Assembly: GCF_012911015.1 (NCBI RefSeq) | Contig: NZ_WVVV01000006.1 | Span: 150,830 to 214,829, forward strand | Direction: 5' to 3' | Source of the DNA: Chelativorans sp. ZYF759 | Lineage (GTDB): Bacteria > Pseudomonadota > Alphaproteobacteria > Rhizobiales > Rhizobiaceae | Length of the DNA: 64,000 bases | Made by a program: the position numbers and the translations under genes | Notes under the pieces: generated by a model | The model's database searches: none | What the model was told of the DNA's origin: nothing | Seen by the model: only the letters and a program-made list of their open reading frames with translations | Shown: positions 42,602 to 54,481 of the stretch, piece by piece | How the letters are laid out: each line of letters begins with the position of its first letter | Numbering within the stretch: position 1 is the stretch's first letter

Positions 42602-43318
42602 TCAGTGACGGACTTCGTCGCCGACGCGCTCCACAATCGCCTGGGAGTCGACATGGGTGGCGAAGGCGCGGCGAATCTCCTGCCAGTGGAAGCGCACCGA
42701 ATTGAGGACAATCTCCTCGTCGAGCCGCTTCAGCTCGTCTGCGATCGGCGCCCATTTCAGGACGCTTTTCGGGCTTTCGGTGAAGGCGGCTTCCTTGTCT
42801 CCGATGGCCAGCCAGTGGGTGCGGGCGATCCGGTCCCGCAGCTGGCGCGCATGGGCGCGGAAATCCGGCCCGGCGTCTCCCGGCAGACCCGCGCGCCCCA
42901 GTATCTCGTCCACCAGAGCGACCATCATCGCCGCCACCCTGTCGGCTTCGCGCGGATGGTTCTGGGCAACGCGCGACCCCGAATAAGCCGCGAGATCACC
43001 CACGCAATCGAGCCAGATCTGCCATTTGGCGCGATTGATGCCGACCACGAAGACATCGTCGTCGAAGAGTTCCGGATAGCGCATGCCCATGCGGGTGCGC
43101 AGGTAGCCGTAGAGCGAGGTCTGCGCCATGTAGCTGGCGCGCGACTCGATGAAATGCGCCAGCGCCTCCGGCGTGTCGATGGGGCCCATCCGCGCCGCAT
43201 CGCCGAGCCCGAAATAGCTGCGCAACATCGAGAAGAGTTCACGCGGTCGCAACGCGTCGAGCGAAAAGCGCGCGCCTGAATTCTGTTGGCGTCTGACGAT
43301 CCGGGGCGTGCGTGTCAT
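42602..43318 (-). CDS. Conserved-looking protein of unknown function
   Basis: A 238-residue, mostly helical soluble protein with no signal peptide or membrane helix. I do not recognise a domain. Features include many Arg residues, a stretch ESRASYMAQTSLYGYLRTRMG (about 60-80), the aromatic NRAKWQIWLDC region and a C-terminal charged helix. The ATG at 43318 is preferred because AGGAGG lies upstream; the frame is open to 43378. It ends the leftward run of genes after ATP12. Confidence 0.6.
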   Translation of the reverse strand: MTRTPRIVRRQQNSGARFSLDALRPRELFSMLRSYFGLGDAARMGPIDTPEALAHFIESRASYMAQTSLYGYLRTRMGMRYPELFDDDVFVVGINRAKWQIWLDCVGDLAAYSGSRVAQNHPREADRVAAMMVALVDEILGRAGLPGDAGPDFRAHARQLRDRIARTHWLAIGDKEAAFTESPKSVLKWAPIADELKRLDEEIVLNSVRFHWQEIRRAFATHVDSQAIVERVGDEVRH

Positions 43319-43413
43319 CAAGTGATGGCCTCCTCCCGGCCGTCCTTCAGCTGGCGGCAATCCTGCGTCAGCCAGCATGCGCTTGGCAAGACGAATCGCC
43401 TCCTACCTTCGCA

Positions 43414-52299: not shown

Positions 52300-53402
52300 G
52301 CGGCGACCTCCCCTCCGTCGCGCGGCCCGGCCAGGCGCCGTTCGAGCCGCCGCACCACCCAGGCCAGCAGGGCGAGACCGAGCCCGGCCAGCAGGAGCAC
52401 GCCCGCCGTGCCGAGCATGGTGCCCAGCAGGACCAGATAGACATAGCACAGTTCGACCGCGAAGGCCGCATAGGCGAGCCACCGCAGGCCGCGATTGTCG
52501 CGGCCGGCAACCAGCAGCGCGCCTGCCACTCCCGCAAGTGTCAGGAGCACGAGCAGGAAATGCAGCCCGTCATCGGCATAGAGAACATGCAGCATCGCCA
52601 TTCCCGACAGGAAGTGGACCAGCCCATGCAGCGAAGGTTTGCCGCCGAGCCCGAGCCTGGCGGCCATGGGCAGGGAGGTACGCTCTGCCGCAAACAGCGT
52701 GCCGGCCAGAACCAGCACCAGCATCGGCACCAGCGCCGTCTCGGTGTTGAAATAGGCGATCCAGGAAAAGAAGACCAATACCAGCGACAGCAGATGGCGG
52801 GCGGGATGGCTGCCGGTCCACAACGACACCGCCCACAGCCCCGCCGCCAGCAGGAGCCAGAGATAGGGGATGGCGTCCGTGCGCACGAAAAGATCCGCCG
52901 TCATCAACAGCCAGACCCCGGACAGAAGCACGGCGCCGATCGTCAACGGGCTGCAACGCAGGAGGATGGCGGCCAAGACCGTTCCCGCGAGCCAGGTCAG
53001 GATCGCGTCGGCCTCGTCACCCGACATGTGGTACATCTGCGCGACCAGCGCGATCGACCCGCCAAAGGCAATCGCGGCGACCAGCCAGGCCGCTTCGCCG
53101 AAAACTGCGTGATCGCGCAGCTTCAGCACCGATCCGCCGACATAGCCGACCAGGATGAGGGCCATCAGCAGCCCGACCCGGACCAGCCTGGGTATGGCCT
53201 CCCAGTTGGCTGCGACGAGAAGCAGAACGGCCGCGCCGACCAGTATCCCGCCCATCATCGCAAAGATGGCCGGAAAGCTGATCCGGCTGCGCGCATGCGC
53301 CTCGATGTCGAGCGCCAGCCTTTCGGCCGTGCCGGCATCGATCAGACCGTCGGCGGTCCAGCGCGCGATCTCGTTCTTCACACGTTCGGCGTAGCTCGCC
53401 AT
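52296..53402 (-). CDS. DUF2157 domain integral membrane protein
   Basis: A 368-residue protein. A soluble N-terminal helix-rich stretch (about 1-40, with WTADGLIDAGTAERL) is the usual DUF2157 head, followed by about ten to twelve membrane helices starting at FAMMGGILVGAAVLLLVAANW. The tail is Arg-rich. The GDYXXLXY partner is encoded directly downstream. The pair is widespread in bacteria but of unknown role. It is divergent from the DUF1127 gene. Confidence 0.85.
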   Translation of the reverse strand: MASYAERVKNEIARWTADGLIDAGTAERLALDIEAHARSRISFPAIFAMMGGILVGAAVLLLVAANWEAIPRLVRVGLLMALILVGYVGGSVLKLRDHAVFGEAAWLVAAIAFGGSIALVAQMYHMSGDEADAILTWLAGTVLAAILLRCSPLTIGAVLLSGVWLLMTADLFVRTDAIPYLWLLLAAGLWAVSLWTGSHPARHLLSLVLVFFSWIAYFNTETALVPMLVLVLAGTLFAAERTSLPMAARLGLGGKPSLHGLVHFLSGMAMLHVLYADDGLHFLLVLLTLAGVAGALLVAGRDNRGLRWLAYAAFAVELCYVYLVLLGTMLGTAGVLLLAGLGLALLAWVVRRLERRLAGPRDGGEVAA

Positions 53403-53466
53403 CCCCGTTCATCCCACCCCTTCGCCCGGTCCGAGCGGCCCCCGCGGCCTCACCACTTTTCCGCCA

Positions 53467-53481
53467 TTGTGCATTGCACAA
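53467..53481. promoter_or_regulatory. Perfect LysR-type palindrome upstream of DUF1127
   Basis: TTGTGCATTGCACAA is a perfect 7-1-7 inverted repeat containing a T-N11-A core, the pattern of LysR-family sites. It lies 105 bases before the DUF1127 ATG and about 65 bases from the divergent DUF2157 start, so it could control either. The regulator is not in the window. Confidence 0.5.
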
Positions 53482-53586
53482 AACGCAATGGTGCTATGCA
53501 AACTCAAATCTACCGGAAACCCCGCTGCGCGCCTATCTTCCAGTCATCACGAACGACGAAAAACACGTACGAAACGAGCAAGAACA

Positions 53587-53727
53587 ATGAACCTGATCCG
53601 CAATTATCGCAACTGGCGCCGCTACCGCGAGACCGTGACCGAGCTGAGCCGCCTGTCCAACCGCGAACTGAACGACCTCGGCATCAACCGCGGCGACATT
53701 CCCTTCGTCGCCCGCAAGTCGGTCTAA
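53587..53727 (+). CDS. DUF1127 (YjiS-like) small arginine-rich protein
   Basis: A 46-residue DUF1127 protein, MNLIRNYRNWRRYRE onwards, with the typical LSRLSNRELNDLGINRGDIPF core. These arginine-rich proteins are RNA- or stress-linked in alphaproteobacteria; in Rhodobacter a DUF1127 protein (CcaF1) is encoded just upstream of CcsR small RNAs and binds RNA. The same order is seen here, with three hairpins starting nine bases after the stop. The ribosome site is weak. A palindrome lies upstream. The frame is open to 53467 but DUF1127 starts at 53587. Confidence 0.88.
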   Translation: MNLIRNYRNWRRYRETVTELSRLSNRELNDLGINRGDIPFVARKSV

Positions 53728-53735
53728 TTCCTCTT

Positions 53736-53767
53736 CGACGAGGCCTACCTCCTCCCAGGCCCCGTCG
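53736..53767 (+). ncRNA. Cuckoo/CcsR-like hairpin 1
   Basis: Arms CGACGAGGCCT (53736-53746) and AGGCCCCGTCG (53757-53767) form 10 pairs with one A-C mismatch. The loop is ACCTCCTCCC with the exact CCTCCTCCC motif at 53748-53756. CcsR (cuckoo) RNAs show this anti-Shine-Dalgarno-like loop downstream of DUF1127 genes. Confidence 0.85.
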
Positions 53768-53772
53768 ATCAA

Positions 53773-53804
53773 GATCGGCGACTACCTCCTCCCAGTCGCC
53801 GATC
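53773..53804 (+). ncRNA. Cuckoo/CcsR-like hairpin 2
   Basis: Arms GATCGGCGACT (53773-53783) and AGTCGCCGATC (53794-53804) pair perfectly over 11 bases. The loop is again ACCTCCTCCC (CCTCCTCCC at 53785-53793). The stem sequence differs from hairpin 1 while the loop is unchanged. Confidence 0.88.
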
Positions 53805-53811
53805 ATCGAAA

Positions 53812-53847
53812 CGACACCCGCCGGACCTCCTCCCCCGGCGGGTGTTG
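53812..53847 (+). ncRNA. Cuckoo/CcsR-like hairpin 3
   Basis: Arms CGACACCCGCCGG (53812-53824) and CCGGCGGGTGTTG (53835-53847) form 13 pairs including one G-T. The loop is ACCTCCTCCC (CCTCCTCCC at 53826-53834). As the strongest and last stem it may also end the transcript, though it lacks a T run. Confidence 0.85.
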
Positions 53848-53872
53848 TGATTCAAGGGCCTGCCCAGGCGCC

Positions 53873-54481
53873 TCAGCTGCCGCCGAGAAATCCCTCGCCC
53901 AGCCATTGAGACATCGGCTTTATCTGCGGTGCCGCGCCGCCCGGCCCATACCAGCCATCAACAGACCAGCGCTCGCCCGTACCCGTCTCGCGGATGACCG
54001 CCGTGGCGTGGAAATAGCGGCCGTCGACGATTGCGCCGCGGGTGACGTTCGTTTCCACCACGTGATGACGCAACAGGCCGATTTCGGCGAGATAGAGAAG
54101 CAGCGAACGCGTGTTGGTCGAGACGTCGATGCAGTCCATCTGCCCGACCTGGCCGGTCTGCGCGATGTTCGACCTGGCTTCGTCGCGCACGCCGATCACC
54201 TCGGTGGAGCGCTCCTCGAAATGCTGGACGGCCCGCGCGATCGCGGCGCGCTCCTGTGCGGGGCCTGGACTTCCGGCCTCCATGATCCGTGTCAGCGTGG
54301 CCCGATCGGCCGCGCCCATGTCGAGCCTTGTGGTGTTGCGGCAGTCGAACCCGTGGCAGACATGGATGCGCGCGGCATCGACCCGCGCGATTTCGCCGTG
54401 GAAATTCGACGAGGCGGACGTGCAGGCGGCGACGCCGAAGACGAGCAACGGCAGCAGAAGTGACGGAGACCCCAGACCCAT
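53873..54481 (-). CDS. Lipoprotein with transglutaminase-like Cys-His-Asp pattern
   Basis: A 202-residue predicted lipoprotein; the lipobox is VAAC with Cys20. The mature part has paired cysteines in [11 protein letters not shown] possible catalytic set follows: Cys in [17 protein letters not shown], His in [10 protein letters not shown] and Asp in WSVDGWYG. The order Cys-His-Asp and the helix after the cysteine recall transglutaminase-like cysteine peptidases. The family was not recognised and activity is inferred. It is convergent with the DUF1127-cuckoo unit and divergent from trmFO. Confidence 0.7.

What the first reader, a model, noticed from the sequence alone, without database searches (positions are those of the whole stretch)
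53728..53850. Three tandem cuckoo/CcsR-type hairpins with identical CCTCCTCCC loops after a DUF1127 gene
Seen: three stems in 112 bases with different arms but the same ten-base loop ACCTCCTCCC, nine bases after the DUF1127 stop. Constant loops with varied, compensated stems mean selection on RNA structure. Known: CcsR (cuckoo) RNAs of Rhodobacter carry this motif, lie downstream of a DUF1127 gene and respond to stress. Inference: this is a cuckoo unit of the same type in a rhizobial-like genome; the loop could bind purine-rich ribosome sites.
Basis: partly seen in the sequence, partly recalled or inferred. Interest (0 to 1): 0.85.

Follow-up and report, generated by a model that had tools for sequence, protein, structure and literature searches.

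The report
Small protein with built-in regulatory RNAs
A tiny protein gene is followed by three RNA hairpins that mimic the ribosome's own mRNA-binding sequence, a known bacterial gene-silencing RNA family, and both appear to be switched on together by one oxidative-stress regulator.

Summary
Window 53735-53848 holds three strong hairpins with the same ten-base loop ACCTCCTCCC, just after a 46-aa DUF1127 gene (53587-53727). The stretch is a full-length match to Rfam ar14 (99.2 bits, cut-off 58.8). ar14 is the family of the anti-Shine-Dalgarno sRNA NfeR1, and DUF1127 plus CcsR-like RNA is the published "CIN1" arrangement, so this is a new member of a known kind.

What I add is the control region. 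Upstream of the DUF1127 gene lies a site close to the motifs reported for the LysR regulator LsrB/VtlR, at a fixed distance from the -10 box. The core TGCA-N6-GCA is present in 39 of 42 non-redundant DUF1127 genes that head a DUF1127-ar14 operon. In 36 of those 39 the -10 core lies 57 or 58 nt on (control ORFs carrying the core: 0 of 32). The genome's second ar14 copy, which has no DUF1127, has the same core and spacing, and the genome encodes an LsrB homologue. Best reading: an LsrB-activated transcript makes a small DUF1127 protein and an anti-SD sRNA that silences mRNAs. Expression, processing and targets are inferred.

The parts
53475..53500 (+). LsrB/VtlR-type operator: TGCA-N6-GCAA at 53475-53488 and CAATGGTGCTATGCA at 53486-53500
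   Evidence: published motifs TGCA-N6-GCAT (PMC10746234) and CAATGCAGCCATGCA (PMC12595884); the window has 7 of 8 and 12 of 15 letters respectively
53533..53538 (+). -10 element CTATCT, 58 nt after the start of the TGCA core; transcription start inferred near 53545; no clear -35
   Evidence: the sigma-70 consensus scan found no promoter here
53587..53727 (+). DUF1127 gene, 46 aa, short type
   Evidence: Pfam PF06568 E 1.8e-17
53730..53850 (+). ar14 / cuckoo sRNA unit, three hairpins
   Evidence: Rfam RF02344 99.2 bits, model 1-123 of 123
53735..53768 (+). hairpin 1, loop ACCTCCTCCC 53747-53756
53773..53804 (+). hairpin 2, loop ACCTCCTCCC 53784-53793
53811..53848 (+). hairpin 3 (14 pairs), loop ACCTCCTCCC 53825-53834; most stable of the three, probable 3' end of the transcript (inferred), no strong U-tract
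   Evidence: terminator scan 0 hits

Best explanation
This is a bipartite LsrB/VtlR-activated operon. LsrB, a redox-responsive LysR-type activator with a homologue elsewhere in this genome, binds about 57-70 nt upstream of the start site and recruits sigma-70 polymerase (inferred). One transcript of about 300 nt then encodes a 46-aa DUF1127 protein and carries an ar14 RNA as its 3' end (inferred). The RNA part is released or used in place as an anti-Shine-Dalgarno sRNA. Its three equivalent CCUCCUCCC loops pair with purine-rich ribosome-binding sites of mRNAs and block translation (shown for the family member NfeR1, inferred here). The DUF1127 protein acts alongside, either as an RNA-binding maturation helper as CcaF1 does in Rhodobacter or by binding a partner protein as the Agrobacterium short DUF1127 proteins do (both from papers, untested here).
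For: RNA: full-length ar14 match; fold z -8.43; compensatory changes; 296 hairpins. Protein: PF06568. Pairing in one transcript: in 47 cases (not made non-redundant) where a loop cluster starts within 120 nt of a DUF1127 stop, the distance from stop to first loop word is 20-33 nt in 43 and 51-98 nt in four. Synteny: of 80 trmFO loci, 70 have a DUF1127, 56 a loop cluster, 55 both, 26 in operon form. Control: VtlR motif with up to 3 mismatches upstream of 31 of 42 non-redundant operon-heading DUF1127 genes, against 1 of 420 shuffles and 25 of 711 other ORFs; TGCA-N6-GCA in 39 of 42, against 48 of 711 control ORFs on either strand; -10 core at 57 or 58 nt in 36 of those 39, against 0 of 32 controls with the core and about 2% of shuffles. 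DUF1127 copies internal to a tandem pair (0 of 10) and ar14 copies following another ar14 (0 of 7) have no site, as one promoter per operon predicts. In this genome the 16-mer GCAWDGSTGCYATGCA has 3 exact places in 4.68 Mb (9 with up to one mismatch; backward control 0), two of the three at the ar14 loci C73 and C38; the 16-mer was written from those two promoters and their relatives, so this shows rarity, not an independent find. C38 has the same 58-nt spacing. LsrB homologue beside an AbcR (ar15) RNA: best PDB match 9hh1, 456 bits, next 116; 9hh1 is the LsrB structure of the A. tumefaciens paper PMC11975290 (passage). In four named genomes, all 7 DUF1127 genes that head an ar14 operon carry the VtlR motif (<=3 mismatches), against 2 of 16 DUF1127 matches without loops; one further copy is internal to a tandem pair.
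Against: No RNA or binding data. The sequences compared are related and were chosen by trmFO similarity or by best ar14 score, so conservation is partly descent and choice, although site and spacing are kept where the flanks differ. The window's own site is imperfect (GCAA for GCAT; 3 of 15 letters off the Brucella motif). No -35 was recognised. Of the 42 operon heads, 3 lack the core and 11 fail the 15-mer at 3 mismatches. Of 54 non-redundant standalone ar14, only 7 match the 15-mer at <=3 mismatches and 22 have the exact TGCA-N6-GCAT on either strand. The third ar14 of this genome (C86) has neither site nor adjacent DUF1127. DUF1127 genes without ar14 carry the site too (13 of 89 for the 15-mer, 35 of 89 for the core), so the site is not specific to the operon form. 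There is no strong terminator. A search for full complements of the loop near start codons gave 11 places against 2 for the backward pattern, and two of the 11 are the antisense strand of one ar14, so the target set is not established.
Confidence: 0.78

Rival explanations
1. A Rhodobacter-like CcsR unit in the strict sense: transcribed from an RpoH-type stress promoter and matured by RNase E with the DUF1127 protein.
For: Same gene order as described for ccaF1-CcsR1-4 (PMC10253847, passages; PMC8625941, passages).
Against: The upstream region carries the LsrB-type core at the family's fixed spacing, and there is no TTG at 16-19 nt before the -10 (read). A formal RpoH model was not run. The RNA matches ar14 end to end.
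Confidence: 0.1
2. The hairpins act in cis only, as a 3' stabiliser or terminator of the DUF1127 mRNA, and do not regulate other mRNAs.
For: They follow the ORF directly and the last hairpin is very stable.
Against: A terminator needs neither three units nor an invariant loop. The loop is kept while stems change, and the same kind of RNA occurs without a DUF1127 gene in front, at C38 and in 54 non-redundant cases in all (no DUF1127 end within 320 nt upstream, no loop word within 160 nt).
Confidence: 0.05
3. The RNA is a general titrator of SD sequences or of another RNA partner rather than a specific mRNA silencer.
For: Three identical loops per RNA and three RNAs over the cut-off in this genome; the loop shares ACCTCCT with the recalled 16S end.
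Against: NfeR1 silences defined mRNAs such as ntrB through these seeds (PMC10746234, passages).
Confidence: 0.07

Closest known systems
ar14 family (Rfam RF02344), NfeR1 of Sinorhizobium meliloti
   Same: Three hairpins with CCUCCUCCC in each loop and variable stems; LsrB-type site at the matching distance from the start. A conserved 29-nt stretch upstream of NfeR1 homologues of Sinorhizobium, Rhizobium, Agrobacterium and Brucella was already reported (PMC10746234, passage). Loop clusters lie upstream of trmFO also in Sinorhizobium (L042, L050, L054); that one of them is NfeR1 was not checked.
   Different: NfeR1 is described as a transcript with its own promoter; here the RNA follows DUF1127 with only 7 bases between. 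The NtrC site reported for NfeR1 (TGC-N11-GCA, -116 to -101) is not seen at that position in the window (by eye).
CcsR1-4 / ccaF1 (cuckoo RNAs, CIN1 locus) of Rhodobacter sphaeroides
   Same: DUF1127 gene directly followed by CcsR-like RNAs; the shared anti-SD word is recalled, not compared here.
   Different: ccaF1 encodes 71 aa and is driven by RpoHI/RpoHII (PMC10253847, passages); here 46 aa and an LsrB-type promoter.
VtlR-activated DUF1127 genes of Brucella, and atu1667 of Agrobacterium
   Same: Short DUF1127 protein (Brucella), VtlR motif upstream (PMC12595884, PMC7486931, passages).
   Different: The passages read treat them as protein genes; here, and in three Brucella/Ochrobactrum-type genomes, an ar14 RNA follows.
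AbcR (ar15) sRNAs
   Same: Anti-SD sRNA; LsrB/VtlR control reported (PMC10746234, PMC7486931, passages).
   Different: Different Rfam family; this genome has its own AbcR beside the LsrB homologue.

Membership tests
ar14 (RF02344) | score above the family's gathering cut-off over the whole model | tested here: met
   99.2 against 58.8 bits, positions 1-123
ar14 (RF02344) | three hairpins with CCUCCUCCC unpaired in each loop | tested here: met
ar14 (RF02344) | expressed as an sRNA | not testable with these tools
   no RNA data
Cuckoo / CIN1 locus (DUF1127 + CcsR-like RNA) | DUF1127 gene immediately upstream on the same strand | tested here: met
   53587-53727, PF06568 E 1.8e-17
Cuckoo / CIN1 locus (DUF1127 + CcsR-like RNA) | co-transcription and processing by RNase E | not testable with these tools
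   no RNA data
CcsR of Rhodobacter | RpoHI/RpoHII promoter | tested here: inconclusive
   no TTG at 16-19 nt before the -10 on reading; no formal model run
LsrB/VtlR regulon | TGCA-N6-GCAT / CAATGCAGCCATGCA site upstream | tested here: met
   imperfectly: 7 of 8 letters and 12 of 15 letters; 58-nt spacing to the -10, as in 32 of 39 operon heads with the core, the window included
LsrB/VtlR regulon | regulator present in the genome | tested here: met
   L123:1850-2770, best match 9hh1 456 bits
LsrB/VtlR regulon | binding, and loss of expression without LsrB | not testable with these tools
   needs experiment

The most novel reading that the evidence does not exclude
Across the Hyphomicrobiales a core output of the redox regulator LsrB/VtlR is not 'small proteins' plus separate sRNAs but a single module, DUF1127 protein plus anti-Shine-Dalgarno RNA under one promoter of fixed geometry. 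Several DUF1127 genes reported as VtlR targets would then be carriers of hidden cuckoo RNAs, so past work that altered only the reading frames would have missed the RNA arm. NfeR1 would be the same module after the protein and RNA came under separate copies of the promoter.
Probability: 0.5. Interest if true: 0.62.

Novelty: new member of a known kind. Interest (0 to 1): 0.42.

Why it matters
Three literatures (LsrB-NfeR1 in Sinorhizobium, VtlR-DUF1127 in Brucella and Agrobacterium, DUF1127-CcsR in Rhodobacter) describe parts that lie together in this one locus. By the term counts of searches, no held paper listed there contains a regulator name (LsrB or VtlR), DUF1127 and one of the RNA terms searched (NfeR1, ar14, cuckoo) together. 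If the promoter assignment holds, the RNAs become candidates for the part of the LsrB/VtlR phenotype that its known targets do not explain, and the DUF1127-RNA link becomes testable in harmless rhizobia.

Tried and rejected
RpoH-type promoter: not seen on reading the sequence, not modelled. Sigma-70 and terminator consensus scans: nothing in 53400-53900. The two other CCTCCTCCC copies of the window (6667, 43329) do not form the open-loop hairpin. The copy at 43329 is, on the other strand, GGGAGGAGG-N10-ATG and could be read as a target, but the ORF there has an earlier ATG (42602-43378), so I do not claim it. A search for full loop complements near ATG gave 11 places against 2 for the backward control; two of the 11 lie on the antisense strand of one ar14, and of the other nine loci three gave no ORF of 40 aa or more. 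Too weak for a target list. RNAalifold did not recover hairpin 1 because arms of different length were misaligned. Weak ar14 hits below the cut-off in this genome: L004 with one loop word, L005 which is the AbcR locus, L006 with a weak score and not identified further; not counted as copies. Structure prediction was not used.

Full report
What is there. The window carries, on the + strand, a 46-aa DUF1127 gene at 53587-53727 (PF06568, E 1.8e-17) and, 7 bases after its stop codon, three hairpins at 53735-53768, 53773-53804 and 53811-53848. Each has the ten-base loop ACCTCCTCCC. Rfam's ar14 model matches 53730-53850 over all 123 positions with 99.2 bits, against a cut-off of 58.8. The fold has z = -8.43, and the loop word is over-represented in the window (5 against 0.73 expected).

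Selection on structure. I collected 296 distinct loop-centred 41-mers from clusters of two or more loop words in L001-L122 (L007-L013, which repeat the window genome's loci or DUF1127 hits, left out). In 98% the loop is open and closed by a stem, against 16% with shuffled flanks; flanking positions are 28-60% conserved, while the loop itself was the search word and so is fixed by choice. In an alignment of 23 hand-picked units (22 behind DUF1127, one standalone), 16 of 22 predicted pairs, all in hairpins 2 and 3, have changes on both sides that keep the pair.

Where it occurs. RF02344 was found in 45 of 61 genomes (own plus 60 relatives) at E <= 0.001, and over the cut-off in 37. The window's genome has three copies over the cut-off: this one; C38:26266-26384, standing alone after a sulfhydrylase-like gene; and C86:45297-45412, beside a phasin-like gene (both neighbours named by eye only). 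There are two DUF1127 genes in the genome, this one and one about 2.8 kb from the C86 copy. Of the 80, 70 have DUF1127, 56 a loop cluster, 55 both, and 26 the operon form with loop 1 within 120 nt of the stop; some loci are cut short by contig ends. The neighbourhood is therefore conserved, in two layouts: operon (for example Mesorhizobium, Phyllobacterium, Brucella-type, this window) and split (Sinorhizobium, Rhizobium), where RNA and protein genes lie some hundred bases apart.

How it is switched on. Published work gives two motifs. For NfeR1 it is TGCA-N6-GCAT at about -72 to -60, bound by LsrB and needed for activity (PMC10746234, passages read). For Brucella it is CAATGCAGCCATGCA as the VtlR motif (PMC12595884, passages). 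PMC7486931 calls the Brucella VtlR an orthologue of a rhizobial LysR regulator (passage); that this is LsrB is my reading of it. I used these outside motifs as tests. The 15-mer with up to 3 mismatches occurs in the 160 nt upstream of 31 of 42 non-redundant (85% identity) DUF1127 genes that head an operon with ar14. The comparison classes are: 0 of 10 internal DUF1127, 0 of 7 following ar14, 13 of 89 DUF1127 without ar14, 7 of 54 standalone ar14, 25 of 711 other ORFs, and 1 of 420 shuffles of the operon heads. The exact TGCA-N6-GCAT on either strand is in 27 of 42, 0 of 10, 0 of 7, 35 of 89, 22 of 54 and 30 of 711 respectively; shortened to TGCA-N6-GCA it is in 39 of 42 and 48 of 711. One row of 224 was dropped for lack of upstream sequence (the first cluster of L014).

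Geometry. The distance from the TGCA core to a -10 core (NTANNT) is 57 or 58 nt in 36 of 39 operon heads that carry the core, 13 of 17 standalone ar14 and 29 of 35 DUF1127 without ar14 (core on the forward strand). It is so in 0 of 32 control ORFs that carry the core and in about 2% of shuffles. In the window the core is at 53475 and the -10 (CTATCT) at 53533, spacing 58. At C38 it is TGCAAAAAACGCAT and CTAGAT, spacing 58. With a start 7 nt after the -10, the core lies at -70 to -57, about where LsrB was mapped at NfeR1. The 16-mer GCAWDGSTGCYATGCA has three exact places in the 4.68-Mb genome: these two and one at C70. No -35 consensus is seen, which suits an activator-dependent promoter but is not proof.

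The regulator. The genome's AbcR (ar15, 44.9 bits, cut-off 40) lies beside a LysR-family gene (Pfam HTH_1 and LysR_substrate). Its best solved relative is 9hh1 with 456 bits, next best 116; 9HH1 is the LsrB structure deposited with the A. tumefaciens paper PMC11975290 (passage), which calls LsrB redox-responsive in its title.

A discriminating check. In four named genomes (Brucella rhizosphaerae, Ochrobactrum sp. CGA5, Brucella endophytica, Mesorhizobium jarvisii) I looked at all 24 DUF1127 matches (23 over the Pfam cut-off). Eight have CCTCCTCCC words within 260 nt after the stop. One of these is the internal member of a tandem pair and has no site. The other seven all carry the VtlR motif with 3 or fewer mismatches, and ar14 was confirmed by Rfam in each of these loci. 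Of the 16 without loops, two carry the motif at that level. B. rhizosphaerae and Ochrobactrum sp. each have three motif-bearing DUF1127 genes, two of the three with ar14, which recalls the three VtlR-activated DUF1127 genes reported in B. abortus and B. melitensis; that they are the same genes is inference, since classical Brucella genomes were not examined.

What it does. For NfeR1 the three seeds are redundant and silence ntrB and transporter mRNAs at the start region (PMC10746234, passages). The loop here is the same word. I take silencing by SD occlusion as the mechanism by homology. The role of DUF1127 is open: CcaF1 binds RNA and helps CcsR maturation (PMC10253847, PMC8625941, passages), while short DUF1127 proteins act on PhoR by protein contact (PMC12501420, passages). 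The 46-aa length here resembles the short type.

Known or new. The RNA family, its loop, its association with DUF1127, a conserved stretch upstream of NfeR1 homologues in several genera, and LsrB control of one member are all in print. New here, as far as searches show for the held library, is that the DUF1127-ar14 unit as a whole sits behind an LsrB/VtlR-type promoter of fixed geometry. That library lacks most subscription papers. The 2015 cuckoo-family paper and the 2021 CcaF1 paper were not held, and the original NfeR1 and B. abortus VtlR papers were not read, so the point may be made there.

Noticed in passing
L126:1501-1622 (G000:C70:239620): The only other exact place of the 16-mer box in the genome lies about 50 nt upstream of a sul1 RNA (RF03058, 79 bits). 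No check of a -10 at the ar14 spacing was made there, so it may be unrelated.
   Followed up: partly
L128:1501-1516: A one-mismatch copy of the box, inside a longer inverted repeat of GCATGG/CCATGC, lies just upstream of a gene that looks by eye like the pyruvate dehydrogenase E1 alpha gene.
   Followed up: no
L151:1168-1803 (Brucella endophytica): An AbcR-type ar15 RNA, a VtlR-boxed DUF1127 gene and an ar14 RNA lie in a row within 650 nt.
   Followed up: no
L133 (G000:C79:13642): Proteins that look by eye like bacteriochlorophyll synthesis subunits (BchF/N/B-like): the organism may be a phototroph.
   Followed up: no
L087, L120 and L122: Four successive ar14-like clusters follow one DUF1127 gene (L087 is an Aurantimonas, the others unnamed); L022 Pseudaminobacter and L024 Mesorhizobium jarvisii have three.
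   Followed up: no
window 43316-43337: GGGAGGAGG-N10-ATG on the minus strand, a full complement of the loop word in front of an in-frame ATG, but the ORF also has an earlier ATG.
   Followed up: partly
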